The notes under the pieces: generated by a model | What the model was told of the DNA's origin: nothing | Database searches by the model: none | The model's input: the letters and a program-made list of their open reading frames with translations, nothing else | Shown here: positions 38,449-61,282 of the stretch, piece after piece | Layout of the letters: the number at the start of each line of letters is the position of its first letter | How positions within the stretch are numbered: the stretch's first letter is position 1 | Made by a program: the position numbers and the translations under genes | From: Shinella sp. CPCC 101442 | GTDB lineage: Bacteria > Pseudomonadota > Alphaproteobacteria > Rhizobiales > Rhizobiaceae | NCBI RefSeq assembly: GCF_024704725.1 | Contig: NZ_JALIQS010000002.1 | Span: 992,001 to 1,056,000 of the forward strand | Direction of reading: 5' to 3' | Length of the DNA stretch: 64,000 bases

Positions 38449-40407
38449 CTAGGAGATGAGGCCGGCGGCAAACATCGGCCCGCCCTTGTGTGCGGGAAAA
38501 CCGTAACCGTTGATCATCACCAGATCGATATCGCTTGAGCGCGCGGCAATGCCCTCCGAAAGCAGCGCCCTGCCCTCGTCGACCATCGCCTTGAGCAGCC
38601 GCTCCATGATCGCGTCCGTGGTGAAGGTGTGCGGCACGATGCCTTTTGCCGCCCGCGCCGCTTCGATCACGGCGGTGACGGCAGGATCGACGGTCTTCTC
38701 GCCGTTCGGATAGGCATACCAGCCGCGCCCGGTCTTGCGGCCAAGACGGCCCGCCTCGCAGAGCCTGTCGGCGATCTCGACATAGCGCTCGGCGGGATCG
38801 CGGGTCGCGGCCTGCCGCTTGCGGCGCGCCCAGGCGATATCGAGCCCGGCCATGTCGCTGACGGCGAAAAAGCCCATCGGGAAACCATAGGCCTCCATCG
38901 CCGCATCGATCTCCTGCGGCAGGGCGCCGTCCTCCACCATGAATTCCGCCTCGCGGCGATAGGCGGAGAAAATGCGGTTGCCGACGAACCCTTCCGTGAC
39001 GCCGCAGACGATCGGAAGCTTGCCGAGACGCTTGACGAAGGCAAGCGCGCTCGCCAGCACGTCCGGCGCGGTTTGCGCGCAATCGACGACCTCGACGAGG
39101 CGCATGACGTTGGCGGGTGAAAAGAAATGCAGGCCGACCACGCGGGACGGGTCGGCGGTCACTGCCGCGATCGCGTCTGGGTCGAGATAGCTCGTATTGG
39201 TCGCCAGAATGGCATGCGGTGCAACGATGCCGTCGAGCCTGCGAAACAGCTCCGTCTTGACCGTGAAGTCATCGAAGACGGCCTCGACGACAAGATCGGC
39301 CGTTGCAAGACCCGTGGCCTCGGCGGTCGTATGCAGGCGTGCGAGACAGGCGTCGCGGCCTTCCACGGTCAGGCGCTTGGACTGGACGGCCTTGTCGAGG
39401 AGGCCGGCGATACGGGCATGGCCGCTCTCGGCGGCTTCTGTCGTCTGTTCCAGCGCGACCACGCGGTAACCGCTGGTCAGCGCGGAGACCGCGATACCGG
39501 ACCCCATCAGTCCCGTGCCGACCACGCCAATGGTTTCGATGCGCCGCGGTTGCACATCATCGAGCGTATCGACCTTGCCGGCGGCGCGCTCGGCAAAAAA
39601 GACGTGCCGGAGCGCGGCGGATTCCCTGGAATCGCGAAGGCGCAGGAAAGTGGCGCGCTCCTCCGCCAACCCCTGTTCGAGATCGAGCAGCCCCGCGGCC
39701 TTGACGAGGCGGATGGCCTCGACTGGCGCGGCCTGGCCGCGGCTCTTGGCGACGATCTTAGCCTCGGCTGCGCTGACGGCGGCATCGTCGGTCCCGGGAA
39801 TGGCGATTGCGCCCGTCCGGCGAAGCGGCTGCACGGCCACTTCCCGCGCGACGTTGGCGGCCATGGCCAGGGGATCGGTAGCGACGGCATCGGCGAGGCC
39901 CAGCGCAACGGCTTCGGCAACCTTGACCGCGCGTCCCGTGCCGATGAGGTCGATGGCCGCAACCATGCCGATCAGGCGTGGCAGGCGCTGGGTGCCGCCG
40001 GCACCGGGAACGAGGCCAAGCTTCACCTCCGGCAGGCCGAAGGAAGCGCCTTCCCCGGCAATACGGCCGTGACAGGCCAAAACCACCTCGCAGCCACCCC
40101 CCAGTGCCGCACCGGCAACGGCGCAGATGACGGGCTTTTCAGAGGCCTCGATGCGCTCGATCACCTCCGGCAGAAGCGGTTCGACCGGCGGCTTGCCGAA
40201 TTCCCTGATGTCCGCCCCGCCGATGAAGGTTCGGCCCGCGCCCGTTATGACGAGCCCGACAATATCGGATGCGTCGGCGGCATGGTCCAACGCCGCGATC
40301 AGACCGGATCGAACGTGCGCCGAAAGCGCATTGACGGGCGGATTGTCGATGGTGACGACGAGCACGCCGTCTTCCATATGGGCCGAAACGCTCTCGGAAA
40401 ATCGCAT
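38449..40407 (-). CDS. FadB/FadJ-like 3-hydroxyacyl-CoA dehydrogenase / enoyl-CoA hydratase
   Basis: 652 residues from MRFSESVSAHMEDGVLVVTI. Residues ~1-190 form a crotonase domain (NPPVNALS, FIGGADIREF, ALGGGCEVVLACHGRI). Residues ~290-650 form the dehydrogenase with the NAD site IGVVGTGLMGSGIAVSALTSGY, the catalytic His in VVGLHFFSPANVMRLVEVV and the C-terminal repeat. It hydrates enoyl-CoA and oxidises the 3-hydroxyacyl-CoA. Last gene of the minus-strand operon starting with the 2-aminobenzoyl-CoA monooxygenase/reductase, where it would finish ring-derived C7 acyl-CoA degradation. The hydratase glutamates should be checked. Confidence 0.88.
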   Translation of the reverse strand: MRFSESVSAHMEDGVLVVTIDNPPVNALSAHVRSGLIAALDHAADASDIVGLVITGAGRTFIGGADIREFGKPPVEPLLPEVIERIEASEKPVICAVAGAALGGGCEVVLACHGRIAGEGASFGLPEVKLGLVPGAGGTQRLPRLIGMVAAIDLIGTGRAVKVAEAVALGLADAVATDPLAMAANVAREVAVQPLRRTGAIAIPGTDDAAVSAAEAKIVAKSRGQAAPVEAIRLVKAAGLLDLEQGLAEERATFLRLRDSRESAALRHVFFAERAAGKVDTLDDVQPRRIETIGVVGTGLMGSGIAVSALTSGYRVVALEQTTEAAESGHARIAGLLDKAVQSKRLTVEGRDACLARLHTTAEATGLATADLVVEAVFDDFTVKTELFRRLDGIVAPHAILATNTSYLDPDAIAAVTADPSRVVGLHFFSPANVMRLVEVVDCAQTAPDVLASALAFVKRLGKLPIVCGVTEGFVGNRIFSAYRREAEFMVEDGALPQEIDAAMEAYGFPMGFFAVSDMAGLDIAWARRKRQAATRDPAERYVEIADRLCEAGRLGRKTGRGWYAYPNGEKTVDPAVTAVIEAARAAKGIVPHTFTTDAIMERLLKAMVDEGRALLSEGIAARSSDIDLVMINGYGFPAHKGGPMFAAGLIS

Positions 40408-40414
40408 CTTGCGC

Positions 40415-40810
40415 CTATTCGGGAATGACGGCCGTGGCCTGAATTTCGATCTTGGCACGGTCCTCCACCAGCGCCACCACCTGCATGGCCGCCATGGCGG
40501 GATAATGCCGGCCGATGGTTTCGCGATAGGCCTGGCCGATGCCGCGCAGGTTGCCGAGATATTCCTGCTTGTCGGTGAAGTACCAGGTCATGGTGGTGAT
40601 GTGGTGCGGCTCAGCGCCACCGGCGGTGAGCACGGCGACGACGTTCTTCAGCGTCTGGCGCACCTGCTCGACGAAATCGTCGGTTTCGAATTCGGCGTTC
40701 GCGTTCCAGCCGATCTGACCGCCGACGAAAAGCGTGCGGCCACTCGCCGCCATGCCGTTGGCATAGCCGATGGGCTTTACCCAGCCTTCAGGTTGCAGGA
40801 TCGTGTGCAT
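40415..40810 (-). CDS. RidA-family enamine/imine deaminase
   Basis: 131 residues. RidA/YjgF fold with GRTLFVGGQIGWNANAEF, VRQTLKNVVAVLTAGGAEPHHITTMTWYFTDK, and the C-terminal signature PAMAAMQVVALVEDRAKIEIQATAV. RidA proteins speed hydrolysis of enamines and imines to ketones and ammonia. It overlaps the thioesterase start by 23 bases within the anthranilate operon, so I infer that it removes the amino nitrogen from the enamine-like product of 2-aminobenzoyl-CoA reduction. The conserved arginine that binds carboxylates was not identified with certainty (R in VEDRAKIEI is a candidate). Confidence 0.85.
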   Translation of the reverse strand: MHTILQPEGWVKPIGYANGMAASGRTLFVGGQIGWNANAEFETDDFVEQVRQTLKNVVAVLTAGGAEPHHITTMTWYFTDKQEYLGNLRGIGQAYRETIGRHYPAMAAMQVVALVEDRAKIEIQATAVIPE

Positions 40811-41219
40811 GGGGCGTCTCCAGATGATGGGTCAGTGCGGCGCGGATATCGTCCGGCCAGGCAAGCGAGGCGTTCGTGTCGAGCGACGTGGCGACGATGC
40901 GGTGTTTGGCCGTCCAGAGAACGGTTTCACCTCTGGAAACCGTGTGTTCCAGATCGAGTGACGAACGGCCGATGGCGCAAACCGAAAGCGCGAATGTCAG
41001 TTCATCGCCCTGAAAGCCCGGGTTCCGGAACGTCAGGTCGAGACGTACCGTCGGCACGCTCATGCGCCGCACTTCGTTCATTACCCGCCAGGGAAAGCCG
41101 AGTGAGGCGAAAAAATCCTCCAGCACGCCCACGAGGATATTCAGATAGGACGGGAAATAGGCGATCCCCGAGGGATCGCAGTCTCCGAAGCGCAGCGGCT
41201 TTGTGATCGCAAACACCAT
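40788..41219 (-). CDS. Acyl-CoA thioesterase (hotdog fold, 4-HBA-CoA type)
   Basis: 143 residues. The hotdog pattern FGDCDPSGIAYFPSYLNILVGVLEDFFASLG contains the catalytic Asp (D of CDPSG) of the Pseudomonas-type 4-hydroxybenzoyl-CoA thioesterases. It hydrolyses an aromatic or alicyclic acyl-CoA, perhaps releasing CoA from dead-end intermediates. Within the anthranilate operon, nine bases after the acyl-CoA dehydrogenase stop. Confidence 0.85.
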   Translation of the reverse strand: MVFAITKPLRFGDCDPSGIAYFPSYLNILVGVLEDFFASLGFPWRVMNEVRRMSVPTVRLDLTFRNPGFQGDELTFALSVCAIGRSSLDLEHTVSRGETVLWTAKHRIVATSLDTNASLAWPDDIRAALTHHLETPHAHDPAT

Positions 41220-41227
41220 GGCCGGCC

Positions 41228-42415
41228 CTATCGCGCCGGCGCTTTCATCAGCTCGCGGCCGATGATGAGCTTTTGCACCTCCGTCGCGCCCTCATAGATG
41301 CGCAACGCGCGGATTTCGCGGTAGAGCCGTTCGGTGATCTCGCCTACGCGCACGCCGCGACCGCCGAACAGCTGCAGCGCCTGGTCGATGACCCATTGCG
41401 CGTTTTCCGTTGCCGTCATCTTCGCCATGGCCGCCTCGCGGGTCGTCGGCAGCTTCTGCACGTCGCGCTTCCACGCCGTGCGGCTGGTCAGGAGGGCTGC
41501 GGCATCGATGGCCGTCGCCATCTCGCCAAGCGTGCTTTGCGCCGTCGGCAGATCGGAGAGCGTGGCACCGAACATCTTTCGGCTTTTCGCATGCGCCACC
41601 GCTTCATCGAGCGCCCTGCGGGCAAAGCCGGTCGCTGCGGCGGCGACGGACGGGCGAAAAATGTCGAGCGTTCGCATGGCGATCTTAAATCCCTCGCCGG
41701 GGCTGCCAAGCAGCTGTGCGGCCGGGATGCGGCACTTGTCGAAGCGGATGCGGGCCAGCGGATGCGGCGCGATGGTCTCGAGACGCTCGACGATGCTGAA
41801 GCCCGGCGTATCGGCGAAGACGACGAAGGCGGAGATGCCACGCGTGCCGGGCGCTTCGCCGGTGCGGGCGAAGACCGTGTAGACATCGGCGATGCCGCCG
41901 TTGGAAATCCAGGTCTTTTCGCCGTCGAGAATGAAATCGTCCCCCTCGCGCCGGGCCGCACAGGCCATGGCGGCGACGTCGGAGCCGGCGTCGGGCTCGG
42001 AGAGGGCGAAAGCGGAAATCCATTCGCCGCTGGCGACCCTGGGCAGAACCAGCTCCTTCAGCGCCTGCGAACCGGACAGGCTGATCGCACCGGTACCGAG
42101 ACCCTGCATGGCGAAAGCAAAATCCGCCAGGCCATCCGCATAAGCCAATGTCTCGCGCACCAGGCAGAGCGCCCGGCTGTCGATCTCCTCGCTTGCCCCG
42201 CCGAACGCCTTCGGCACGCAATGGCGCAGAATTCCGGCGCCACCGAGTGCCGCAACCAGCTGCCGGCAAGCCGTGTCGACATTGCCGTGGTCGATATTGT
42301 CGAGGCCGCCACGGGCGACGAAGCCGTCGAGTTCGACCGCAAGCGCGCGGTGGCTGTCGTCGAAGAACGGCCAGTCGAGATGATCGCGCGTGGGCGCCAT
42401 GGCGGGAGGCTGCAT
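41228..42415 (-). CDS. Acyl-CoA dehydrogenase
   Basis: 395 residues. FAD-dependent acyl-CoA dehydrogenase with [36 protein letters not shown], the C-terminal [45 protein letters not shown] and the catalytic base probably Glu in IYEGATEV. It introduces a 2,3-double bond; in this operon the likely substrate is the ring-reduced or ring-opened CoA ester derived from anthranilate. One base separates it from the hydratase upstream, so the two are tightly coupled. MAPTRD (five residues in) is an alternative start. Confidence 0.9.
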
Positions 42416-42416
42416 G

Positions 42417-43259: not shown

Positions 43260-43270
43260 GTCGTCTTCCT

Positions 43271-44041
43271 TCAGAGAATTTCGCCACCGGCGACCGCGAT
43301 GGCCTGGCCGGTGATCGCGCTCGCCCCTTCGGAGACGAGCCAGGAAACCGTGTGCGCCACCTCGCCCGGGCTCACCAGCCGGCCCTGCGGATTGGAGCGT
43401 GCGAGGCTGGCGCGCGCTTCCTCGCGCGAACGGCCGGTCTTCTCGCTGATCGTGTCGAGGGCGCCGTCGATCAGCGGCGTATCGGTAAAGCCGGGGCAGA
43501 CGGCGTTAACGGTGACGTCGCTGCGCGCCAGCTCCAGCGCGAGCGCCCGCGTCAGGCCGATGACACCGTGTTTGGAGGCGCAATAGGCGGAGACATAGGC
43601 GTAGCCGGTAAGGCCGGCGGTGCTGGCGACATTGACGATACGGCCCTTGCCGGCCCGGCGCACGGAGGCGAGTGCCGCCTGCGTGACCAGATAGACGCCC
43701 GTTAGGTTGATGGAGAGCACGCGCTGCCAGAGCGCGAAATCGGTCTTTTCGAAGGGTGCGGAGGGTGCTTCACCGGCGCAGTTGACGAGCACGGCGATGT
43801 CTCCCGCTGCCGCGATGGCAGCACGGATGCCGCGCTCGACGGCTGCGGCATCCGTCACATCGAAACCGTCCTGCACGAAGGCTTCGCCGCCGGCCGCGCG
43901 GATGTCGTCGCGCACCGCCTCCAAAGGCCCTGCCCGCCGACCGGCGAGGCTGACGATATGGCCCTCGGCAGCAAGCGCCAGCGCGATGGCCTTGCCGATG
44001 CCGCTGCCGGCACCCGTGACGAAGGCGTGCCGCTTGCTCAT
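43271..44041 (-). CDS. SDR-family 3-hydroxyacyl-CoA/alcohol dehydrogenase
   Basis: 256 residues from [21 protein letters not shown]. Rossmann [12 protein letters not shown] ([10 protein letters not shown]), Ser in VASTAG and YxxxK in [16 protein letters not shown]. The style is that of FabG/PhaB-like dehydrogenases acting on CoA or cyclic ketone substrates. It overlaps the monooxygenase/reductase end by 4 bases (ATGA) and is second in the operon. I infer reduction or oxidation of the cyclic 3-oxo/3-hydroxy CoA ester that follows dearomatisation. Confidence 0.88.
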
Positions 44042-46356
44042 GGCTTACCCGCCGTCGCCGCACGGGCAAGGTTGTTCACATATTGCGCGCGGGCGGAATA
44101 ATATTGTTTTGGCCAGGGCTGGGCATCATAGCCGATCTTCGCCGCCTCGTGCATGACGAAGGACGGGTCGGCCAGATGCGGACGGGCGACGGCGCAGAGA
44201 TCGGCGCGACCCGCTGCGATGATCGAATTGGCGTGATCGGCCTCGGAAATCGCGCCGACGGCGATGGTCGGCACCTGGATTTCGTTGCGGATCTTGTCGG
44301 AGAACGGTGTCTGGAACAGGCGGCCATAGACCGGCCTCTCCTCCTTCACCACCTGGCCGGACGAGCAGTCGATCATGTCGGCGCCGGCCTCCTTGAACAT
44401 TTTAGCGAAGATCGCCGCATCCTCGGGCGTGTTGCCGCCCTCGTGCCAGTCGTTGGTCGAGAGGCGCACGGAGATCGGCTTGTCCTCAGGCCAGACCTTG
44501 CGGATGGCGTGGAACACTTCGAGCGGGAAGCGGGCGCGCGCCGCATGGTCGCCGCCGTAGTCGTCGGTGCGATGGTTGGTCAGCGGCGACAGGAAGCTCG
44601 ACAGCAGATAGCCGTGCGCGGCGTGCAGTTCGATTATGTCGAAGCCGATGTCGCGGGCCCGTTCGGTCGCCGTCACGAAATCCGCGACGACGCGGTCCAT
44701 ATCCGCACGGGTCATTTCGCGCGGCGTCTCGGAATGCGCGAGATAGGGCACGGCCGAGGCCGAGATCAGCGGCCAGCCACCGTCGGAGAGCGGCTGGTCG
44801 ATGCCCTCCCAGGCAAGTTTCGTCGCACCCTTGCGGCCGGCATGACCGAGCTGGATGCCGATCTTCGCCGGCGTCTCGTGGTGGACGAAATCGACGATGC
44901 GCTTGAAGGCCTGCTGCTGCTCATCGTTCCAGAGGCCGAGGCAGCCGGGCGTGATGCGCGCATCGGGCGACACGCAGGTCATTTCGGGGAAGACGAGAGC
45001 CGCGCCACCCATGGCGCGGGCGCCGAGATGGACGAGGTGGAAATCGCCCGGCAGGCCATCCGTCGCCGAATACATCGCCATCGGCGACACGACGATGCGG
45101 TTGCGAAGTGTCATCCCCCGCAGCTTGAAGGGCGTGAACATCGGCGGCGGCACGGCACCATCAGCCGCCTTTTCCGCACCCGCCCGCTCGGCGAACCAGC
45201 GCTCGAAACCTTCGAGCCAATCCCTGTCGCGCAGGCGTAAGTTCTCGTGGCTGATGCGCTGCGAGCGCGTCAGCATGGAATACATGAACTGTTCCGGCTC
45301 CAGCGTATCGGCATAACGCGTGCCCACCACCTCGAACCATTCCATGGCGTTGCGCGCGGCATTCTGGATACGGGCGACATCGACGCGGCGCACCTCCTCG
45401 TAAGCGGCGAGCACGGCCGGGATATTGGCCTTGTCATGGCCGATCAGGTCGAACTGGCGTGTGAGTTCGATCGCATCGTCGATGGCGAGCTTGGTGCCCG
45501 AGCCGATGGCGAAATGCGCGGTATGGGCGCTGTCGCCCATCAGCACCACATGGCTGTTGCCGTTGAAATGGCTCCACTTCTCGCAGATCAGCCGGCCGAA
45601 ATTCAGCCAGGCCGAGCCGCGCAGGTGGCGCGCATTGGTCATGAGGCTGTGGCCGTCGAGCGTTTCGGCAAAGAGCTTTTCACAGAAATCGATCGACTGG
45701 TCCTGGTCCATCTGGTCAAGCCCGTGGGCCTTGAAAACCTCGTCCGTCGTCTCGACGATGAAGGTCGAGGTCGTGTCGTCGAAGCGATAGACATGCGCCT
45801 GGAACCAGCCGTGTTCGGTGCGCTGGAAATCGAAGGTGAAGGCGTCGAACGGCTTGTTGGTGCCGAGCCAGATATAGCGGTTCGGCCGCATGACCATATC
45901 CGGCTGGAAGACATCGGCATATCGGTTGCGGATGCGGGAATTGACGCCATCGGCCGCGATGATGAGGTCGGCGTCCGGGAATTCCTCGTCGTCCTGCACG
46001 TCGCGTTCGAACAGCAGTTCGACGCCGAGTTCCAGGCAGCGGTCCTGCAGGATGTTGAGCATCTTCTTGCGGCCGATGCCGACGAAGCCGTGGCCGGTCG
46101 TGCGGATCTTGCGGCCCTTGAAGACCAGCTCGATATCGTCCCAATGGTTGAACGAAATCTCGATCGCCTCGGCCGTTTCCGGGTCCCACTGGCGCATCGA
46201 CTGCATGGTTGCATCGGAGAAGACGACGCCCCAGCCGAATGTGTCGAAAGCCCGGTTGCGCTCGACGACGGTGACGTGATGTTCGGGATGCTGTCGCTTC
46301 ATCAGAAGCGCGAAATAGAGACCGGCAGGCCCACCACCGATACAGACGATCCGCAT
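44038..46356 (-). CDS. 2-aminobenzoyl-CoA (anthraniloyl-CoA) monooxygenase/reductase-like two-domain flavoprotein
   Basis: 772 residues from [20 protein letters not shown]. Residues ~1-390 form a salicylate-hydroxylase-type FAD monooxygenase: GGGPAG near 8, [14 protein letters not shown] near 132 and [15 protein letters not shown] near 273. Residues ~405-772 are an old-yellow-enzyme domain: [54 protein letters not shown]. This exact architecture is known for 2-aminobenzoyl-CoA monooxygenase/reductase and the related salicylyl-CoA 5-hydroxylase. It hydroxylates and then reduces the ring, producing a non-aromatic amino-oxo-cyclohexene CoA ester. First gene of a seven-gene operon. Anthranilate is preferred over salicylate because kynA and kynU lie in the same island. 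Confidence 0.85.
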
Positions 46357-46447
46357 GTCGTTCTCCTCCCTAGCTCCGGCTGCGTGTGTCGCGGATGCAT
46401 GTGGCATCTGGACTATGAAAGGCAGGATGGACTCGTTTCGGAGAAAC

Positions 46448-46459
46448 TTCAAGCTTAAA
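46448..46459. promoter_or_regulatory. Candidate operator of the anthranilate operon
   Basis: TTCAAGCTTAAA, an imperfect palindrome centred on AAGCTT, ~90 bases before the monooxygenase/reductase ATG. A near-identical copy lies at 60355-60366 before the CoA ligase and formamidase genes; both are followed by related T-rich sequence and end near ATTGCC/AATGCC. The adjacent MarR-type regulator is the likely binder. Confidence 0.6.
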
Positions 46460-46546
46460 ATTGTTTTTGATGCGGCAATGCCTGGAAGGGCACGCACCGG
46501 ACGCGGCGCGCCCTCACGACGTCATCGAGAATGGGAAAGCAGCGCC

Positions 46547-47071: not shown

Positions 47072-47139
47072 AACAAAGGTCCGCCTCTTGTCCCGTCGCC
47101 TTGCCTTTTAGAGATGTTTGCAGCACTTGGACAGCGCTG

Positions 47140-47904: not shown

Positions 47905-47937
47905 CGAGGTCCCCTGGCGCCGGTATGTCTTCACATC

Positions 47938-48010
47938 AAATATATATACTTTTGGAGATGCAATCAAAATATATATATTATTTGACAAGCCGCTCCACCG
48001 TCGCCATGAT
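47938..48010 (+). promoter_or_regulatory. Operator/promoter region of the TrpX-like operon
   Basis: Two AT blocks, AAATATATATA (from 47938) and AATATATATATT (near 47968-47979), sit ~30 bases apart. They are followed by a sigma-70-like promoter: TTGACA (47982-47987), 17 bases, CATGAT (48005-48010). The AT blocks are the likely operator of the divergent GntR regulator, placed just upstream of the -35. The transporter gene starts 53 bases after the -10. Confidence 0.6.
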
Positions 48011-48063
48011 CCCCGTCAAGCCGCTGAGGAACGGCGGCCGCTTGTCGTATCTGGGAGGATTTC

Positions 48064-49896: not shown

Positions 49897-49901
49897 CGAC
49901 C

Positions 49902-50825: not shown

Positions 50826-50834
50826 GATTTTCCG

Positions 50835-52082: not shown

Positions 52083-52138
52083 GCTTACGGCCGCGGCCGG
52101 TTTTACCGCCTACGGCCTCTCAACCCCGTGGACCTTTC

Positions 52139-53107: not shown

Positions 53108-53110
53108 GGA

Positions 53111-53793
<683 letters not shown>

Positions 53794-53797
<4 letters not shown>

Positions 53798-54543
53798 GCG
53801 GCCTCTCCCAGATAGGCACGGCGCACTTCGGGGTCGCGGCGGATTTCATCGACCGTGCCGGTCGCGATGATACGGCCATAGACGAGCACCGAGATGCGGT
53901 CGGCGAGCGCGAAGACGGCGTCCATGTCATGCTCCACCAGCAGCATCGGCGCTTCCTGACGCAGGCCGTCGAGGAAGGCGGTCAGCTGCTTGGAGCTTTC
54001 CGGCCCCATTCCCGCCATGGGCTCATCGAACAGAAAGGCCTTTGGCGACAGCGCCAGCGCGATGGCGATTTCGAGCTGCCGGCGTTCGCCATGGGAAAGC
54101 TCGGCTGCCGATATCTGCGCGCGGTGGGCCAGGCCGACGCGCTCCAGCACGGTCATGGCGGGGTCGATCAGGCTCCTGTCGGCGGTCACCTGCCGGAAGA
54201 AGCGGAAGCTGCTGCCCTCCTTCGCCTGGACCGCCAGCATGACGTTTCGGAGCGCTGAGAACTCCTGGGCGAGCGACGAAATCTGAAAGCTGCGGGCAAG
54301 GCCAAGCCTTGCACGCGCGGCCATGTCGAGCCCACCGATATCCTGGCCGAGGAAGCGGATGGTGCCGCTGTCGGCTTTGAGCGAACCGGCGATCTGGTGG
54401 ATGAGCGTGCTCTTGCCCGCACCGTTCGGGCCGATCAGCGCGTGGATCTGGCCGGGATGGAGGTCGAGGCTGACGCCGTCCGTCGCCTTGAGCGCGTTGA
54501 AGGACTTTCGGAGATCGCGAATTTCGAGAATGGGCTCAGACAT
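53794..54543 (-). CDS. livG: Branched-chain/aromatic amino acid ABC transporter ATP-binding protein LivG
   Basis: 249 residues from MSEPILEIRDLRKSFNALK. Walker A GPNGAGKST, ARARLGLARSFQISSL, signature LSHGERR, Walker B FLFDEPMAGMGP and the H-loop LVEHDMD. The short length fits LivG after the usual long loop. It overlaps livM by 8 bases and livF by 4. Confidence 0.93.
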
Positions 54544-55507
54544 GGCGCGGCTTTCCCGAAACGAGACCAAGGAACCCGCCGCGCGCAAAGAGCACGATGC
54601 CGAGCAGGATGAGGCCGAGGAAGAACTGCCAGCGCTCGGTGATGCCGCCAAGCACATATTCGAGGCTGACGAAGATCATGGCACCGGCGACCGGCCCGAA
54701 CAGCCGCCCCTTGCCGCCAAGGATGATCAGCACCATCAGCTCGCCCGACATGTGCCAGGAAAGCATGGACGGGCCGACGAAGCGGTTGAGATCGGCATAG
54801 AGTGCGCCGGCAAGGCCGGTGATCATCGCCGACAGCATGAAAGCGACGAGGCGGATCTTGAACGGCGGAATGCCGACGGCGGCAAGACGCACGCCATTCT
54901 GCCGCGCCGCCTGCAAAGCACTGCCGAAGCGCGAGCCCTCGATGAGCCGGAAGAGCAGGAGTGCTGCCATGAGGACGGCGAAGCATACCAGGAAATAGGG
55001 CAGCGGCTGCGCGGTGTTGATGCCCGGGAAGGCGTTGCGCACGTAGATCGACAGCCCGTCCTCGCCGCCATAGGCCGGCCAGGAAATCGCGAAATAGTAG
55101 ATCATCTGCGCGAAGGCGAGCGTGATCATGATGAAATAGACGCCCGTGGTGCGCAGGCTGATCGCACCGATCGGTAGGGCGACGAGGCCGGCGACGAGGA
55201 CAGCGACCAGCCAGATCAGCGGCATCGAGGTCGTGCCGGGAATGCCGGCGAAAAGCGGTTCGGCATTGAAGGCATGGGTCGCCAGGATGCCGGCGGCATA
55301 GCCGCCGAGGCCGAAGAAGGCGGCGTGGCCAAAGGAGAGCAGCCCGCCCAGACCCAGCGCCAGATTGAGGCCGACGGCGGCGAGCGCAAGCACGACGACG
55401 CGGGTCGCGAGCGTCACATAGAAGGGTTCCCCCATGCCGGCCGCAACCAGCGGCAAGGCGAGAAGAACAGCGGCGAGCAACAGGTTGATGGTAGTTTCGC
55501 GCTTCAT
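54536..55507 (-). CDS. livM: Branched-chain/aromatic amino acid ABC transporter permease LivM
   Basis: 323 residues from MKRETTINLLLAAVLLALPL. Typical LivM: LALGLGGLLSFGHAAFFGLGGYAAGIL, ALQAARQNGVRLAAVGIPPFKIRLVAFMLSAMITGLAGAL (coupling loop) and LGGKGRLFGPVAGA. Nine to ten transmembrane segments. Heterodimer partner of LivH. Overlaps the livG start. Confidence 0.93.
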   Translation of the reverse strand: MKRETTINLLLAAVLLALPLVAAGMGEPFYVTLATRVVVLALAAVGLNLALGLGGLLSFGHAAFFGLGGYAAGILATHAFNAEPLFAGIPGTTSMPLIWLVAVLVAGLVALPIGAISLRTTGVYFIMITLAFAQMIYYFAISWPAYGGEDGLSIYVRNAFPGINTAQPLPYFLVCFAVLMAALLLFRLIEGSRFGSALQAARQNGVRLAAVGIPPFKIRLVAFMLSAMITGLAGALYADLNRFVGPSMLSWHMSGELMVLIILGGKGRLFGPVAGAMIFVSLEYVLGGITERWQFFLGLILLGIVLFARGGFLGLVSGKPRHV

Positions 55508-55514
55508 CGGGGCC

Positions 55515-56435
55515 TCACGATTGCGCCGCGAACAGGCCGCTCGGCCTGAAGGCGAGGATGAGGGCCATGACGACATAGATCAGCATGGAAGCGAGAGCTG
55601 CACCGATGGTCGTGGCCTGCGCGGCGGGCATGGTGAGCGCAAGCAGCGAGGGCAGCAGGAAACGCCCCATCGTATCCACCACGCCGACGATGACGGCACC
55701 GACGAGCGCGCCTTTGATGGAACCTATGCCGCCGATGACGATGACGACGAAAGCGAGGATGAGCACCGGTTCGCCCATGCCGACCTGCACGGACTGCAGC
55801 GCGCCGACCAGCGCGCCGGCAAGGCCCGCAAGGGCGGCACCGAGCGCGAACACGACCGTATAGAGCGTGCTGATATCGACGCCGAGGGCGCCAATCATCT
55901 CGCGGTCGGACTCACCGGCGCGGATACGCATGCCAAGGCGGGTTTTCGAGATCAGCAGGTAGAGACCGACGGCGACCAGGATGCCGACGGCAATGATGGC
56001 CAGACGATAGAGCTGGTATTGCCCGCCGCCCGGCAGCGGCACGGCCCCCTGCAGCAGTTTCGGAATATCGAGATAGAGCGGGAAGGAGCCGAAGAGCCAG
56101 CGCGCGCCCTCGGAGAGGATCAGGATCAGCGCGAAGGTGGCGAGCACCTGATCGAGATGATCACGGTCGTAGAGCCGTCTGATGACGGCGACCTCGATCA
56201 GCGCTCCGACGCCGGCCGCCGCCGCAAGGCTGGCGATGAGGCCGAGCCAGAAGGAACCGGTGGCAGCCGCCACCGTGGCGCAGGCGAAGGCGCCGATCAT
56301 GTAGAGCGAGCCATGCGCGAGATTGATGAGGCCCATGACGCCGAAGATCAGCGTCAGGCCGGCGGCCATCAGGAACAGCATCACGCCGAGCTGCAGCCCG
56401 TTGAGCAGTTGTTCGATCAGAAGTGCGGTGAACAC
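55515..56435 (-). CDS. livH: Branched-chain/aromatic amino acid ABC transporter permease LivH
   Basis: 306 residues. LivH features: LLNGLQLGVMLFLMAAGLTLIFGVMGLINLAHGSLYMIGAF, RAGESDREMIGALGVDISTLYTVVFALGAALAGLAGAL and VVIVIGGIGSIKGALVGA. Follows livK across an 86-base gap holding a hairpin, and precedes livM at seven bases. Confidence 0.93.
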   Translation of the reverse strand: MFTALLIEQLLNGLQLGVMLFLMAAGLTLIFGVMGLINLAHGSLYMIGAFACATVAAATGSFWLGLIASLAAAAGVGALIEVAVIRRLYDRDHLDQVLATFALILILSEGARWLFGSFPLYLDIPKLLQGAVPLPGGGQYQLYRLAIIAVGILVAVGLYLLISKTRLGMRIRAGESDREMIGALGVDISTLYTVVFALGAALAGLAGALVGALQSVQVGMGEPVLILAFVVIVIGGIGSIKGALVGAVIVGVVDTMGRFLLPSLLALTMPAAQATTIGAALASMLIYVVMALILAFRPSGLFAAQS

Positions 56436-56470
56436 GGCGTCGGTCCGGGCTTCGGGTCACAGGATACCGA

Positions 56471-56500
56471 CCGGGCGCCGGCACAAGGCCGCACGCCCGG
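56471..56500 (-). promoter_or_regulatory. Intercistronic hairpin between livK and livH
   Basis: A 7-bp outer stem CCGGGCG / CGCCCGG plus a 4-bp inner stem, without a T-run. It is the fourth case in this window of a GC hairpin directly after the binding-protein gene and before the next transporter gene. Confidence 0.6.
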
Positions 56501-56521
56501 GCGATCAGACGTCAGCGAGCC

Positions 56522-57658
56522 TTAGAGGCCGCACTGTTCGGCGTAGGCGTCCTTATGCTTTTCGAAGGCGGTCGCGACGATCTTGTTGGTCAAGACATCG
56601 CCATCCTTCACCACTTCGCGCACATAGATGTTCTGGATCGGGTGCTGGTTGGTGTTGAAGGTGAAATCGCCGCGCACGGACTTGAAATCCGCAGCCTTCA
56701 GCGCTGCGCGGAAGGCGTCCTTGTCCTTGACGCTCGCCTTGGAAAGCGCCGAGAGGATGAGGTTGGCCGTATCCCAGCTCTGCGCCGCGTAAACCGACGG
56801 CAGGCGGTTGTATTCGGCCTTGAAGGCCTGGACGAAGGCCTTGCTCGCCTCGTTGTCGAGGTCCGGCGACCAGCTGGCGGAGTTCTTCACGCCGAGTGCT
56901 GCGTCACCCACGGCCGGCAGAACGTCCTGGTCGAAGGAGAAGGCCGGGCCCATGACCGGGATGCCGACGCCCGACTGGGCATATTGCTTCATGAAGGCGA
57001 TGCCCATGCCGCCGGGCAGGAAGAAGTAGACGGAATCGGCACCGGAAGCGCGGATCTGGGCGATCTCCGCCGCATAGTCCGTCTGGCCGACCTGGGTATA
57101 GACCTCACCCGAGAGCGCGCCCTTGTAGAAGCGCTTGAAGCCGGTCAGGGCGTCCTTGCCGGCGGGATAGTTCGGCGCGAGGACAAAGGTGTTCTTGTAG
57201 TCCTTGTTGGCGTATTCGCCCATGCCCTCGTGGAAATTGTCGTTCTGGTAGGCGACGTTGAAATAGTTCGCGTTGCAGTTCGCACCGGCGAGCGCCGACG
57301 GGCCGGCATTCGGCGAGAGGTAGATGACGTCCTGCGCCACCGTGTTCGGCACGACGGCCATGGCGAGGTTGGACCAGATGATGCCGGTCATCAGGTCGAC
57401 CTTGTCGCCCTGGATCATCTTTTCCGCGATCTGAACGGCCAGTTCCGGCTTCTGCGCGTCGTCCTCCACGACGAGCTCGATATCCTTGTTGCCCGACTGC
57501 TTGATGGCGAGCTGGAAGGCATCGCGCATGTCGATGCCGAGACCGGCACCACCGCCGGAAAGCGTGGTGATCACGCCGATCTTGACCGGCTCGGCATAGG
57601 CGAGGCCGGATGTCGCGAGCGAAAGGCCAAAGAGGCTTGCTGCCAGAATGCGCTTCAT
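56522..57658 (-). CDS. livK: ABC transporter substrate-binding protein, Liv (type I periplasmic) family
   Basis: 378 residues. Signal peptide MKRILAASLFGLSLATSGLAYAE, then PVKIGVITTLSGGGAGLGIDMRDAFQLAIKQSG, the LivK/Peripla_BP_6 start. Further conserved parts: DLMTGIIWSNLAMAVVPN, DSVYFFLPGGMGIAFMKQ and VYAAQSWDTANLILSAL. The subgroup in rhizobia is often linked to aromatic acids. Located 40 bases after kynA on the same strand, so aromatic substrates of the kynurenine/anthranilate route are expected. Two cysteines (NCNAN, QCGL) may form a disulfide. Confidence 0.9.
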   Translation of the reverse strand: MKRILAASLFGLSLATSGLAYAEPVKIGVITTLSGGGAGLGIDMRDAFQLAIKQSGNKDIELVVEDDAQKPELAVQIAEKMIQGDKVDLMTGIIWSNLAMAVVPNTVAQDVIYLSPNAGPSALAGANCNANYFNVAYQNDNFHEGMGEYANKDYKNTFVLAPNYPAGKDALTGFKRFYKGALSGEVYTQVGQTDYAAEIAQIRASGADSVYFFLPGGMGIAFMKQYAQSGVGIPVMGPAFSFDQDVLPAVGDAALGVKNSASWSPDLDNEASKAFVQAFKAEYNRLPSVYAAQSWDTANLILSALSKASVKDKDAFRAALKAADFKSVRGDFTFNTNQHPIQNIYVREVVKDGDVLTNKIVATAFEKHKDAYAEQCGL

Positions 57659-57697
57659 GCTGTTCTCCTCATATAGTTCGGTTTTTATTGTGTTCTA

Positions 57698-58534
57698 TCA
57701 AAGGTCTGTACGAACATGCCATAGCTCGGGGAAGAGTTCCACTTCCAGCATTTTCTTGAGATAGGATGCCCCGGAGGTGCCGCCCGTGCCGCGCTTGAAA
57801 CCGATGATGCGCTCGACGGTCGTCACATGGTTGAAGCGCCAGCGCCGGAAATAATCTTCGAAATCGACCAGTTTTTCCGCCAACTCGTAGAGCATCCAAT
57901 AGCGCTGCGGATTGCGGTAGACGGTCTGCCAGGCGGCAAAGACCTTGTCGTTCTCGGCGCGCGTCTCACGCCAATCGCTGCGATCGGCGTCTTCGCCTAT
58001 ATCGAAACCGTTGCGGCCGAGAAGCAGGATCGCCTCGTCGTAGAGCGAGGGCGCTGCGAGGATCGCCTCCAGTTTTTCCATAATATCGGGGCGATGTGCG
58101 TGCGGGCGCAGCATGGCGGGGTTGCGATTGCCGGCCAGGAACTCGATTGCCCGGTACTGCCAGGACTGGAAGCCCGAGGATTGCCCGAGCGAATCCCGGA
58201 ACTCGGTATATTCGCTCGGCGTCATCGTGCGCAGCACGTCCCAGGCGCTGTTCAGCTGTTCGAAAATGCGGGCAACACGCGACAGCATCTTGAAGGCGGG
58301 CTCCAGGCGATCTTCCCGGAGCGACCGGATCGCCGAACTGATCTCATGCAAGGCAAGCTTCATCCAGAGCTCGGAAGTCTGGTGCTGGATGATGAACAGC
58401 ATCTCGTCATGGGCGGTGGAGAGCGGCTCCTGCGCGGTCAGGACCTTCTCCAGCATCAGATAGTCGCTGTAGGACATGCGCCCTTCGAACGACATCTGCG
58501 CGCCTTCCTTCGAGGGGTCATAGGGCTTGCTCAT
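57698..58534 (-). CDS. kynA: Tryptophan 2,3-dioxygenase
   Basis: 278 residues. Haem enzyme opening tryptophan's indole ring to N-formylkynurenine. Conserved parts: [20 protein letters not shown] with [23 protein letters not shown] (substrate pocket), [18 protein letters not shown], the haem ligand His in [32 protein letters not shown], and [10 protein letters not shown] at the end. One base after the CoA ligase stop and 40 bases before livK, so it is co-transcribed with both. The first step of the island's pathway. Confidence 0.95.
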
Positions 58535-58535
58535 G

Positions 58536-60152
58536 TCAATGCTCCCGCAGGCGAAAACGCTGGATTTTCCCGGTCGCCGTCTTCGGCAGGGCTTCCAGGA
58601 ACTTCACCGAACGCGGGTATTTGTAGGGAGCGATCAGGGCCTTCACATGATCCTGCAGCCGCTTGATCGTCGCTTCGTCCGGCACCACGCCGGCCACCAG
58701 CACGACATGGGCCTCGACGATCTGGCCGCGCTCGCCATCCGGCGCGCCGACGACGGCACATTCGGCGACTTCGGCATGGGCGATCAGCGCCGCCTCCACC
58801 TCGGGGCCGGCAATGTTGTAGCCAGCGCTGATGATCATGTCGTCGGAACGGGCGGCGAAATGGAAGAAGCCGTCCTCATCCTGCAGGAAGGCGTCACCGG
58901 TGAGGTTCCAGCCGTCGCGCACATAGTCGCGCTGGCGGTCGTCGGACATGTAGCGGCAGCCGGTCGGCCCGCGCACGGCGAGCCTGCCCACCGTACCGCG
59001 CGGCACTTCGTGCATTTCCCCATCGACGATCCGCGCCTCGTAGCCGCCAACCGGCTTGCCGGTGGAGGCCGCCTTGCGATCCTCGAAACGGTTGGAGATG
59101 AAGATGTGCAGCATTTCCGTCGCGCCGATACCGTCAAGGATCGGCTTGCCGGTCTTCTCCGTCCATTCCTCGAAAACGGGGCCGGGCAAGGTCTCGCCGG
59201 CGGATATGGCAACGCGCAGCGAGGAAAGGTCCGCGCCGGCGTCCATCGCCTTCAGCATGGCGCGGTAGGCGGTGGGGGCGGTAAACGAGATCGTCGCCTT
59301 GTAGGTCTCGATGATCTCGACCATGTTCGGCGGCGTCGCCTGTTCCAGCAGCGTCGCGGCTGCGCCGAAGCGCAGCGGAAAGATCGCAAGGCCGCCGAGG
59401 CCGAAGGTGAAGGCGAGCGGCGGCGAGCCGACGAAGATGTCGTCGGGCGTCACGCCGAGCACTTCCCTCGCGTATCCGTCGGCAATCACCAGCAGGTCCC
59501 GGTGGAAATGCATCGTCGCCTTAGGCACGCCCGTCGTGCCGGAGGTGAAGCCGAGCAACGCCACGTCGTCGCGGCCGGTTTTCACGGCGTCGAAGATCAC
59601 CGATTTGTCGAGGGCGATACGGTCCAGTTCGGCATCGTGATTGGCGGTGCCGTCGAAGCCGACGACCTGCTTCAGGTAGCGGCTGTCCTTGGCGCAGGCG
59701 ATCACCTCGTCCATCAGGCGCGTATCGCAGAGCGCGAGACTGATCTCCGCCTTGTCGACGATCTTGGCGAGCTCACCGGCCCGCAGCATCGGCATCGTGT
59801 TGACGACGACCGCGCCCGCCTTGGTGGCGGCGAGCCAGCAGGCGACCATGGCGGGGTTGTTGGCCGAGCGGATGAGGATGCGGTTGCCCGGCTTCACGCC
59901 GTAGTTTTCGACAAGCACATGGGCGAGCCTGTTCGTCCAGTCGGAGAGTTCCTTATAGGTGCGCCGCCGCCCGTTGCCGATCAGAGCCGTGCGGTCACCA
60001 AAACCCCTGGCAACCATCGCATCCGTCAGTTCCACGGCGGCATTGATATGGTCCGGATAGTCAAACCCCTCGAGCAGGAACTCCGGCCACGCCTCCGGCG
60101 GCGGCAGGTTATCGCGGGTGAACGTATCGACGTGAGCGGTCGGTCCAAGCAT
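58536..60152 (-). CDS. 2-aminobenzoate (anthranilate)-CoA ligase-like acyl-CoA synthetase
   Basis: 538 residues from [19 protein letters not shown], with AGGGGGA at an acceptable distance; a start 12 residues further up lacks a site. ANL superfamily: [19 protein letters not shown] (P-loop), [15 protein letters not shown] (A5), [31 protein letters not shown] and the C-terminal lysine [10 protein letters not shown]. It adenylates an aryl acid and forms the CoA ester; the closest known activities are 2-aminobenzoate- and benzoate-CoA ligases. First gene of the ligase-kynA-liv unit. Divergent from the formamidase gene. Confidence 0.85.
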
Positions 60153-60354
60153 ATGACGGCTATTCCCCCTGTTCGTGCCCGCCTGCATGGTCAAAGCCGG
60201 CCGGTCTTCAAGTCGTCGCGCGGGTCCATGCGGCCGGGCTGAGCTTTGCCGGACCGTGTCGTCGCGCGGGAAAAATCATCTGTCGTGATGGGCACAGCGA
60301 AGACCTCCACTTCCGCGCTGAACATAAGACAGCATGGCACCTGTCAAAAATTAT

Positions 60355-60366
60355 TTCAAGCCTAAA
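60355..60366. promoter_or_regulatory. Second copy of the candidate anthranilate-pathway operator
   Basis: TTCAAGCCTAAA, 11 of 12 bases as in the copy before the monooxygenase/reductase operon. It sits in the 296-base divergent region between the CoA ligase and the formamidase-like gene, where one regulator could act on both directions. Confidence 0.6.
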
Positions 60367-60448
60367 GTTTCTTGCTTCGACAGCATTGCCTTTGTCCTCC
60401 ATCCGCGCGATTTCTATGCCGCTGGCAACACGAGGGAGGAGCGCTACG

Positions 60449-61282
60449 ATGCTGGAACACCGGATTTCGGACTGGGACAATGCCTATGCCAATACCGTGA
60501 ACATCGCGGGCGGCGAGCGCTGGCCCGCGGCCTGGATCGAGCCCGCCGAGACGTTCCGCAACACGCTTGCCGCCGCCGGCCGCGCAAAGCTCGACCTGGC
60601 CTATGGCGAAGGACCGCGCAACCGCATGGACCTCTTTCTCCCGGAAGGTCCGGCAAAAGGGCTCGTCGTTTTCGTGCACGGAGGCTACTGGGTCTATCTC
60701 GACAAGAGCTACTGGTCGCACCTCGCCGCCGGCAGCGTGGCCAGCGGCTATGCCGTCGCCATGCCGTCCTACACGCTCTGCCCTGATATCCGCATCGCCG
60801 GCATCGTGAAGGAAATCGCGGCGGCGATCACGGAGGGCGCAAGACAGGTCGACGGACCGCTGATGCTGACTGGGCATTCGGCCGGCGGCCATCTCGTCAG
60901 CCGGATGGTGACGGCAACGGCACCGCTCGCGCCCGATGTGCAGCGGCGCATCCGCAACGTCGTCTCGATTTCCGGGCTGCACGATCTGCGCCCGTTGCTT
61001 TCGACCGCCATGAACGAGAAGCTTGCCCTGGACGAGGCGGAAGCGCTGGCGGAGAGCCCGGCGCTGCTGCGCCCGATGGAGAATGCCCGCATCACCTGCT
61101 GGGCCGGCGGCAACGAGCGCGCGGAATTCCTGCGCCAGAACGCGCTGCTCGCCAATATCTGGACGGGCCTCGGCGCGACCACCGCCGCGGTCGCCGAGCC
61201 GGACAGGCACCACTACACCGTCATCGACGGCCTGACCGATGCCAACCACCCGCTGACGCGGCGGCTGCTTTCGGAGGCATAA
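60449..61282 (+). CDS. Alpha/beta hydrolase, probable N-formylkynurenine formamidase
   Basis: 277 residues from MLEHRISDWDNAYANTVNIAG behind GGGAGGAG. HGGYWVYLDKSYWSHLAAG is the oxyanion motif seen in AFMID-type arylformamidases; the nucleophile is in TGHSAGGHLVSRM and the catalytic histidine probably in DRHHYTVIDGL. It would release formate from N-formylkynurenine, the kynA product, giving the kynU substrate. It belongs to the alpha/beta-hydrolase formamidases rather than the metal-dependent KynB cyclase-like family, so I do not use that symbol. Divergent from the CoA ligase with a shared candidate operator. Confidence 0.8.
   Translation: MLEHRISDWDNAYANTVNIAGGERWPAAWIEPAETFRNTLAAAGRAKLDLAYGEGPRNRMDLFLPEGPAKGLVVFVHGGYWVYLDKSYWSHLAAGSVASGYAVAMPSYTLCPDIRIAGIVKEIAAAITEGARQVDGPLMLTGHSAGGHLVSRMVTATAPLAPDVQRRIRNVVSISGLHDLRPLLSTAMNEKLALDEAEALAESPALLRPMENARITCWAGGNERAEFLRQNALLANIWTGLGATTAAVAEPDRHHYTVIDGLTDANHPLTRRLLSEA

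What the first reader, a model, noticed from the sequence alone, without database searches (positions are those of the whole stretch)
38449..61282. A complete candidate route from tryptophan through anthraniloyl-CoA to beta-oxidation in one island
Seen: kynA, an AFMID-like formamidase, kynU, an aryl-CoA ligase, a two-domain monooxygenase/OYE protein and an operon of SDR, crotonase, acyl-CoA dehydrogenase, thioesterase, RidA and FadB-like genes, plus two importers. Known: the aerobic 2-aminobenzoate-CoA pathway uses such a ligase and such a fused monooxygenase/reductase. Inference: tryptophan is used fully as carbon and nitrogen source, avoiding catechol. The joining of the kynurenine and CoA branches in one locus of a rhizobium is noteworthy.
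Basis: partly seen in the sequence, partly recalled or inferred. Interest (0 to 1): 0.75.

Follow-up and report, generated by a model that had tools for sequence, protein, structure and literature searches.

The report
Tryptophan-to-anthraniloyl-CoA degradation regulon in rhizobia
A rhizobial gene cluster carries, probably under one shared DNA switch, enzymes predicted to take tryptophan apart through a coenzyme-A-bound ring instead of catechol, and related clusters point to candidates for the unsolved second half of that route.

Summary
The genes are there as described. kynA, kynU and the fused monooxygenase/OYE protein pass curated cut-offs; the ligase's best solved match is an anthranilate-CoA ligase. 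The formamidase is only AFMID-like and no thiolase lies in the locus.

Four lines tie the two branches together. (1) In 397 genomes of the order, 69 of 73 with kynA also carry the fused enzyme, against 53 of 324 without; an anthranilate-dioxygenase-like protein occurs in 1 of 73. (2) The block recurs in 11 named Shinella, Ensifer/Sinorhizobium and Aminobacter genomes. (3) In 7 of 14 further genomes fetched, kyn genes share one same-strand run with the fused enzyme. (4) A palindrome precedes the fused enzyme in 73 of 80 loci; the window's only two good matches lie at that operon and at the ligase-kynA/formamidase divergent promoter.

The chemistry is known in outline, its lower half not (PMC9007349). 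Sixteen of 80 related operons carry a glutaryl-CoA-dehydrogenase-type gene, suggesting that intermediate. The Rid-like and crotonase proteins lack standard catalytic residues.

The parts
38449..40407 (-). FadB-like bifunctional enoyl-CoA hydratase / 3-hydroxyacyl-CoA dehydrogenase (ORF to 40458; native ATG inferred at 40407)
   Evidence: ECH_1 and 3HCDH domains; E124 and E144 conserved in at least 97% of 43 homologues
40415..40810 (-). Rid-like protein (Ribonuc_L-PSP), proposed to release the ring nitrogen; lacks the catalytic Arg of RidA
   Evidence: PF01042 69.5 bits; the Arg position (alignment) is Met in 56 of 58 aligned sequences
40788..41219 (-). 4HBT thioesterase
   Evidence: PF13279; found in 45 of 80 loci at 45% identity or more
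41228..42415 (-). acyl-CoA dehydrogenase
   Evidence: Pfam; Glu375 in a YEG motif conserved in at least 97% of 43; closest PDB 5idu 500.9 bits
42417..43259 (-). crotonase-fold protein of NF006107; not a standard hydratase
   Evidence: NF006107 469.3 bits, cut-off 330; hydratase Glu positions hold I133 and F153; D162 conserved in at least 97% of 39
43271..44041 (-). short-chain dehydrogenase
   Evidence: adh_short; found in 69 of 80 loci at 45% identity or more
44038..46356 (-). anthraniloyl-CoA monooxygenase/reductase (ACMR) type fused FAD monooxygenase / OYE protein; native ATG 46356
   Evidence: NF006101 1353.7 bits, cut-off 1078; single full-length copy in the genome; start codon and RBS
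46445..46462 (.). predicted operator site 1, 88 bp upstream of the ACMR ATG
   Evidence: 22.2 bits with a matrix trained without the 17 island-type loci; spacing
46547..47071 (-). MarR-family regulator, probable owner of the operator
   Evidence: MarR_2; a MarR lies in the same run of genes in L134-L139
47140..47988 (-). GntR/FCD regulator, CsiR-like
   Evidence: NF008576 149.9 bits, below its cut-off of 218
48064..49050 (+). TrpX-like ABC substrate-binding protein
   Evidence: PF04392 190.4 bits; NF041285 177.3, below its cut-off of 390
49117..49896 (+). ABC ATPase of the TrpX-like importer
   Evidence: ABC_tran
49893..50825 (+). ABC permease of the TrpX-like importer (start inferred)
   Evidence: BPD_transp_2
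50835..52082 (+). kynU, kynureninase
   Evidence: TIGR01814 369.8 bits, cut-off 246.4
52079..53107 (+). PLP-dependent serine/threonine dehydratase-like protein (start inferred), role unexplained
   Evidence: PALP; none of its 17 NCBIfam matches passes a cut-off
53111..57658 (-). Liv-type ABC importer (livF, livG, livM, livH, livK)
57698..58534 (-). kynA, tryptophan 2,3-dioxygenase
   Evidence: TIGR03036 427.4 bits, cut-off 390.7; one match in the own genome at 1e-40
58536..60194 (-). aryl-CoA ligase, proposed anthranilate-CoA ligase
   Evidence: best PDB match 4wv3 anthranilate-CoA ligase 296.6 bits; TIGR02262 369.1, just below cut-off 375.25
60352..60369 (.). predicted operator site 2, in the ligase-kynA / formamidase divergent promoter
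   Evidence: 22.6 bits with a matrix trained without the 17 island-type loci; third-best place in the window scores 7.0
60449..61282 (+). AFMID-like alpha/beta hydrolase, proposed N-formylkynurenine formamidase (ORF from 60386; ATG with RBS at 60449)
   Evidence: NF058665 364.7; 2pbl 266.5 and 4e11 58.9 bits; start

Best explanation
The locus is one regulon for tryptophan catabolism. Tryptophan is imported and opened by KynA. An AFMID-like hydrolase removes the formyl group. KynU splits kynurenine into alanine and anthranilate. The ligase makes anthraniloyl-CoA. The fused monooxygenase/OYE enzyme hydroxylates and reduces the ring to 2-amino-5-oxocyclohex-1-ene-carboxyl-CoA, so no catechol is made. 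These upper steps follow from family membership and published chemistry of the families. The lower steps are inferred: an SDR acts on the ring ketone, a Rid-like protein releases ammonia to give a 2-oxo ring thioester, the crotonase-fold protein opens the ring between C1 and C2 (or shifts a double bond), and acyl-CoA dehydrogenase plus FadB-like protein degrade the C7 dicarboxyl-CoA, probably to glutaryl-CoA and acetyl-CoA with a thiolase from elsewhere. A MarR repressor probably binds one palindrome before the fused-enzyme operon and one between ligase-kynA and the formamidase, and an anthranilate-type ligand would release it (inferred).
For: Curated cut-offs passed for kynA, kynU and ACMR; ligase nearest a solved anthranilate-CoA ligase. 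69 of 73 kynA genomes among 397 of the order have ACMR, against 53 of 324 without kynA (odds ratio 88); the control family PaaA occurs in 48 of the 73 (odds ratio 11); among genomes without PaaA, 23 of 25 with kynA have ACMR against 34 of 276. An anthranilate-dioxygenase-like protein occurs in 8 of 397, 0 over cut-off, 1 of the 73. kynA lies within 40 kb of ACMR in 19 of 69. Block conserved in 11 named genomes. kyn genes in one same-strand run with ACMR in 7 of 14 further genomes fetched. Palindrome: 73 of 80 ACMR loci, 15 of 1491 control segments; two sites in the window at 22.6 and 22.2 bits, third place 7.0. Glutaryl-CoA-dehydrogenase-type cluster beside the operon's acyl-CoA dehydrogenase in 16 of 80 loci, one member 725.4 bits to 3gnc, and in L140. 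Published LC-MS in Arthrobacter Rue61a found anthraniloyl-CoA and a C7H8O4-CoA that its authors say might be cyclohexanedione-carboxyl-CoA, as deamination predicts (PMC3534580, passages).
Against: No activity, growth or expression data. NCBIfam names the fused family salicylyl-CoA 5-hydroxylase. The Rid-like protein lacks the Arg that imine hydrolysis by RidA needs (PMC4433059, passages). The formamidase fits a lipase-named family. The 29-bit lead of the anthranilate over the benzoate ligase is modest. No thiolase in the window. The glutaryl-CoA-dehydrogenase-type gene is not in this operon but elsewhere, at 70% identity. Nine of 80 loci have SDR and Rid-like genes but no crotonase, acyl-CoA dehydrogenase or FadB-like within 10 kb. 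53 of 122 ACMR genomes lack kynA, so ACMR also serves other sources. Two kynA-kynU stretches not linked to ACMR (L121, L122) have no palindrome. A MarR at 45% identity or more lies within 10 kb in only 42 of 80 loci. The C5 oxygen must be removed before glutaryl-CoA can form, and no gene is clearly assigned to that.
Confidence: 0.82

Rival explanations
1. The ligase and fused enzyme serve salicylate (salicylyl-CoA to gentisyl-CoA), and the kyn genes are an unrelated neighbour.
For: [quoted passage not shown] the ligase matches many families and passes the cut-off of none of the 25 shown.
Against: kynA (and mostly kynU) lie in one same-strand run with ACMR in relatives; shared palindrome; Rid-like gene in 76 of 80 loci at 45% identity or more, hard to explain for a substrate without nitrogen, though its activity is unknown; kynA-ACMR co-occurrence.
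Confidence: 0.07
2. The importers and kyn genes feed anthranilate into another route (catechol or 3-hydroxyanthranilate), and the CoA operon is fed by indole-3-acetate or indole.
For: In some Bradyrhizobium and Rhizobium loci the same palindrome and ACMR sit beside iad-like or possibly indole-oxidising modules.
Against: Own genome: nothing for the anthranilate dioxygenase family at 1e-80; three Rieske proteins, two GbcA-like and one unnamed; two adjacent intradiol dioxygenase matches, the one scanned protocatechuate-type. Both branches here share the palindrome. The 3-hydroxyanthranilate route was not searched.
Confidence: 0.06
3. The upper route is right, but the lower half runs to 4-oxopimelyl-CoA or 2-oxoglutarate-type products, not to glutaryl-CoA, with the thioesterase releasing a free acid.
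For: The C5 oxygen sits gamma to the thioester after ring opening (chemical inference); a thioesterase is in 45 of 80 loci; an FAH-family alternative lower branch may exist.
Against: Glutaryl-CoA-dehydrogenase-type gene in the operon in 16 of 80 loci and in L140.
Confidence: 0.35

Closest known systems
Aerobic 2-aminobenzoyl-CoA (abm) pathway of Azoarcus evansii
   Same: Anthranilate-CoA ligase plus fused monooxygenase/reductase, then beta-oxidation (review passages in PMC4539516)
   Different: Here joined to kynA, kynU, a formamidase candidate and importers, with a shared palindrome; the original 2001 paper was not held, so its gene order was not compared
Quinaldine/anthranilate CoA route of Arthrobacter sp. 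Rue61a
   Same: An anthranilate-producing upper pathway linked on one plasmid to ligase and ACMR; ligase activity and anthraniloyl-CoA shown (PMC3534580, passages)
   Different: Upper pathway is quinaldine, not tryptophan; a different phylum (recalled)
kyn plus abm genes of Cupriavidus
   Same: Both gene sets predicted in C. metallidurans CH34 (PMC8879955, passages); abm genes in C. necator JMP134 (PMC2842291, passages)
   Different: Listed as separate pathways; CH34 did not grow on anthranilate and is reported unable to use tryptophan
iad locus for indole-3-acetate (Variovorax, Bradyrhizobium)
   Same: Makes anthranilate, MarR-controlled (PMC9613470 and PMC12633357, passages)
   Different: Different upstream enzymes; the passages seen follow the route to anthranilate

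Membership tests
Bacterial kynurenine pathway to anthranilate | tryptophan 2,3-dioxygenase (TIGR03036 cut-off) | tested here: met
   427.4 against 390.7 bits
Bacterial kynurenine pathway to anthranilate | kynureninase (TIGR01814 cut-off) | tested here: met
   369.8 against 246.4 bits
Bacterial kynurenine pathway to anthranilate | N-formylkynurenine formamidase | tested here: inconclusive
   AFMID-like alpha/beta hydrolase in the island, 58.9 bits to kynurenine formamidase 4e11; two cyclase-family (PF04199) matches elsewhere in the genome, neither in the window
Aerobic 2-aminobenzoyl-CoA pathway | fused FAD monooxygenase/OYE protein over the NF006101 cut-off | tested here: met
   1353.7 against 1078 bits
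Aerobic 2-aminobenzoyl-CoA pathway | anthranilate-CoA ligase | tested here: inconclusive
   best solved match is an anthranilate-CoA ligase, 29 bits ahead of benzoate-CoA ligase; substrate not assayed
Aerobic 2-aminobenzoyl-CoA pathway | formation of 2-amino-5-oxocyclohex-1-ene-carboxyl-CoA | not testable with these tools
   needs an enzyme assay
Anthranilate 1,2-dioxygenase / catechol route | antA large subunit (TIGR03228) | tested here: not met
   no match in the own genome at 1e-80; three Rieske proteins, two GbcA-like (below that cut-off) and one with no NCBIfam match at 1e-40
Anthranilate 1,2-dioxygenase / catechol route | catechol 1,2-dioxygenase | tested here: inconclusive
   two adjacent Dioxygenase_C matches; one is protocatechuate 3,4-dioxygenase beta, the other was not scanned and is read as its partner
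3-hydroxyanthranilate route | kynurenine 3-monooxygenase / 3-hydroxyanthranilate dioxygenase | not tested
RidA imine deaminase | catalytic Arg105 | tested here: not met
   Met in 56 of 58 and Ile in 2 of 58; the Arg's role from PMC4433059 passages
Enoyl-CoA hydratase (the separate crotonase) | two catalytic glutamates, as in the FadB-like domain of the same operon | tested here: not met
   E124 and E144 of the FadB-like align with I133 and F153; that these are the catalytic pair is recalled
TrpXYZ tryptophan importer | NF041285 cut-off | tested here: not met
   177.3 against 390 bits

The most novel reading that the evidence does not exclude
One MarR-type operator system in this order (Hyphomicrobiales, name recalled) runs a plug-in pathway: a conserved anthraniloyl-CoA core fed by exchangeable anthranilate-making modules (tryptophan, indole-3-acetate, indole). 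Its unsolved lower half uses a Rid-like deaminase without the usual Arg and a crotonase-fold ring-opening hydrolase on the way to glutaryl-CoA, with an FAH-family enzyme replacing the crotonase branch in some lineages.
Probability: 0.4. Interest if true: 0.72.

Novelty: new variant of a known kind. Interest (0 to 1): 0.55.

Why it matters
[quoted passage not shown] This locus and its relatives give a bounded list of candidate genes for the missing steps, a predicted intermediate (glutaryl-CoA) and a testable operator. In this order kynA goes with the CoA-route enzyme in 69 of 73 genomes sampled, so annotations that assume catechol there deserve a second look.

Tried and rejected
Island by composition: rejected, GC equals the flanks. 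Terminators and promoters: 18 terminator-like sites against 9.6 expected and 4 promoter-like sites against 2.0; too weak to use. A first search for inverted repeats in the window's intergenic regions missed the operator; it was found by aligning the ligase-formamidase intergenic region of relatives. The first matrix's random-segment control was spoiled by segments overlapping real sites; it was replaced by a Markov-1 control (170 real sites of 14 bits or more, 2 in the control) and by a matrix trained without 17 island-type loci (30 distinct sites). That second matrix is not fully independent: its training sites were picked with the earlier matrix, which included island sites, and one training locus (L039) is a Shinella. 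L053 is counted as lacking a site because the start pattern failed there; one search shows a 33.3-bit site at 8013, just before its match at 8073. Solved structures: none of the 60 rows shown of 148 spans both domains of the fused enzyme. 2-Aminomuconate deaminase was looked at as a Rid-family precedent for ring-nitrogen release; it keeps a conserved cleft Arg (PMC6742747, passages), so it does not explain the missing Arg here. A biotin-synthesis paper that came up for glutaryl-CoA was not relevant (PMC7645780, passages), nor was a soil metagenome paper (PMC7658278, passages). No structure predictions were run: they would not settle substrates. The 2001 A. evansii paper is not held. In the ten paper searches I saw no paper describing a joint kyn-ACMR locus or glutaryl-CoA as an intermediate of this route; most papers were seen only as listing rows, and only open-licence papers are searched.

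Limits: 397 genomes were drawn evenly from the order; thresholds were E 1e-250 (ACMR), 1e-40 (kynA), 1e-80 (antA, PaaA). Fisher values ignore kinship. Gene clusters (c-numbers) were made with a simple ORF caller and 40% identity linking, and Pfam or PDB was run on one member each. In one search, 50 of the 80 loci were given and 49 searched (L076 not held). Of the 18 other genomes with kynA within 40 kb of ACMR, 14 were fetched (G068, G113, G176, G265 were not); in one of them (L123) the stretch ends before kynA.


Full report
What is there. The window lies at G000:C2:992001-1056000 of a 6.1-Mb genome. The nearest listed relative of its fused monooxygenase/OYE protein is in Shinella sp. WSJ-2, at 96%. 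The enzyme genes of the finding exist as coding-type open frames with the expected domains. kynA, kynU and the fused enzyme pass curated cut-offs. The ligase's best solved match is an anthranilate-CoA ligase at 296.6 bits, then benzoate-CoA ligase at 267.8. The formamidase is an AFMID-like alpha/beta hydrolase: it passes a 'hormone-sensitive lipase' family and matches 2pbl at 266.5 and a kynurenine formamidase at 58.9 bits. The fused enzyme starts at ATG 46356. The own-genome search lists ten Thiolase_N matches, none in the window.

Which anthranilate route the genome has. The fused enzyme is present in one full-length copy. Of three Rieske alpha subunits, two are most like glycine betaine monooxygenase (below that family's cut-off) and one matches nothing at 1e-40. 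The anthranilate dioxygenase family finds nothing at 1e-80 in the own genome. There are two adjacent intradiol dioxygenase matches; the one scanned is protocatechuate 3,4-dioxygenase beta, and I read the other as its partner without having scanned it. So a catechol route is unlikely. The 3-hydroxyanthranilate route was not searched.

Are the two branches linked? Four lines say yes. First, co-occurrence: in 397 genomes of the order, 122 carry the fused enzyme and 73 carry kynA; 69 carry both, where 22.4 would be expected by chance. That is 69 of 73 with kynA against 53 of 324 without. The control family PaaA, from another catabolic pathway, occurs in 48 of the 73, so general catabolic richness explains part but not all (odds ratio 11 against 88); among genomes without PaaA it is still 23 of 25 against 34 of 276. 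The 69 genomes fall in 32 genera and 18 families. An anthranilate-dioxygenase-like protein occurs in 8 of 397, none over the cut-off, and in 1 of the 73. Kinship is not corrected for.

Second, the block is conserved. In 49 genomes searched, 25 have kynA. Two Mesorhizobium loci (L016, L031) have a compact version. In M. composti the kyn block and the fused-enzyme operon are on one contig but more than 150 kb apart. In E. adhaerens ST2 kynA is on another contig. So the block is not universal even among close relatives.

Third, elsewhere in the order the genes are interleaved. kynA lies within 40 kb of the fused enzyme in 19 of the 69 genomes, the window's own included. Of the 14 others fetched, seven (L133-L139) have kynA, mostly with kynU and ligase, on the same strand in one run with the fused enzyme; gaps between matches are at most about 200 bases except one of 473 in L138 and one of 452 in L139. 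Several different gene orders occur, which suggests repeated association.

Fourth, regulation. The intergenic region between ligase-kynA and the formamidase holds a block conserved in the window and 12 relatives. The same palindrome, roughly TATTTTAAGCTTAAAATA, lies upstream of the fused enzyme in 73 of 80 loci, against 15 of 1491 random segments of the same loci. Across the 80 loci there are 170 sites of 14 bits or more, against 2 in a Markov-1 control. A matrix trained without 17 island-type loci puts two places of the 64-kb window first: 60352-60369 (22.6 bits) and 46445-46462 (22.2 bits); the third scores 7.0 (its training sites were picked with an earlier matrix that included island sites). 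All 18 loci have at least one site of 12 bits or more; two kynA-kynU stretches not linked to the fused enzyme (L121, L122) have none. The MarR gene next to the fused enzyme, also found in the same run in L134-L139, is the likely regulator; that is inference, and only 42 of 80 loci have a MarR of 45% identity or more within 10 kb.

How the lower half may work. Of 80 loci, the SDR is found in 69, the Rid-like in 76, acyl-CoA dehydrogenase in 63, crotonase in 59, FadB-like in 49 and thioesterase in 45, at 45% identity or more. In 16 of 80 the operon also carries a protein cluster whose one member compared matches bacterial glutaryl-CoA dehydrogenase at 725.4 bits; L140 has one beside acyl-CoA dehydrogenase and Rid-like genes and near kynA, kynU and ligase. 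The own genome has one elsewhere at 70% identity. This points to glutaryl-CoA as an intermediate, hence to a C7 dicarboxyl-CoA after ring opening. Published LC-MS in Arthrobacter Rue61a reports a C7H8O4-CoA ester that its authors say might be cyclohexanedione-carboxyl-CoA (PMC3534580, passages), as expected if nitrogen is lost before ring opening. Two labels need care. The Rid-like protein has Met where RidA has its catalytic Arg in 56 of 58 sequences, and subfamilies without this Arg are set apart from those predicted to hydrolyse imines (PMC4433059, passages). The crotonase lacks both hydratase glutamates that the FadB-like protein of the same operon keeps, and has an Asp162 conserved in at least 97% of 39 sequences. 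I therefore propose ring opening or double-bond shift for it, not hydration; similar single-acid crotonases (PaaG, BadI) are recalled, not tested. Nine of 80 loci have the SDR and Rid-like genes but no crotonase, acyl-CoA dehydrogenase or FadB-like within 10 kb; eight of these carry an FAH-family gene, six of the eight with a cupin gene beside it. This looks like an alternative lower branch, with the FAH protein as a possible substitute cleaving enzyme. What removes the C5 oxygen is unassigned.

What is known. The CoA route for anthranilate is established in outline (PMC4539516, PMC3534580, passages). A Cupriavidus genome has been annotated with kyn and abm genes (PMC8879955, passages). A pathway-annotation study names tryptophan degradation via this enzyme and leaves it out for lack of knowledge (PMC9007349, passage). 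So the concept is known. The joint locus, the shared palindrome, the tight pairing in this order and the glutaryl-CoA lead were not seen in the ten paper searches made (listed under Tried and rejected), which cover open-licence papers only.

Verdict. The finding is real and its main inference well supported; it is a variant of a known kind. Its interest lies in turning the unsolved lower half of the pathway into a short list of testable genes.

Noticed in passing
L019, L029, L038, L045, L048, L056, L058, L060: Near the Rid-like gene and instead of crotonase, acyl-CoA dehydrogenase and FadB-like, these loci carry an FAH-family gene (with a small cupin gene called in six of them): a possible second lower branch (Pfam run on the L019 members only).
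   Followed up: partly
L063, L068, L070, L071, L074, L075: Bradyrhizobium loci in which the same palindrome lies upstream of cluster c45, the start of an iad-like run (in L063/L068: racemase, OsmC, thiolase, SDR, cyclase, SBP, ligase clusters), and again before ACMR: indole-3-acetate breakdown may continue through the CoA route.
   Followed up: partly
L019, L020, L024, L025, L026, L058: Rhizobium/Agrobacterium loci with a styrene-monooxygenase-like protein near ACMR, most with a flavin reductase and five of the six with the palindrome at the module: perhaps indole oxidation to anthranilate.
   Followed up: no
L016 1576-5297, L031 and others (clusters c17, c29): TPP-enzyme and POR-domain genes, probably an aryl-pyruvate:ferredoxin oxidoreductase, lie near the locus; cluster c17 is seen in 14 of 80 loci.
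   Followed up: no
G413:C9:18981-19712, beside L019 (Rhizobium alvei): A degenerate kynA match with five internal stops lies next to the ACMR locus, as if the tryptophan branch had been lost there (same contig inferred from coordinates).
   Followed up: no
L040: A record titled Bacillus subtilis SK6B4 holds a rhizobial-type ACMR locus arranged like Pseudochrobactrum L043; the record is probably mislabelled or contaminated.
   Followed up: no
window 52079-53107: A PLP-dependent dehydratase-like gene follows kynU and is found in 10 of 80 ACMR loci at 45% identity or more (Shinella, Ensifer/Sinorhizobium, Aminobacter); its role in the route is unexplained.
   Followed up: no
order-wide ACMR scores: ACMR scores fall into three groups (61 genomes at 1200 bits or more, 49 at 1080-1163, 12 below); the lower two also include kynA-linked loci (2 and 3 of the 19), so the groups may not be substrate classes.
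   Followed up: partly
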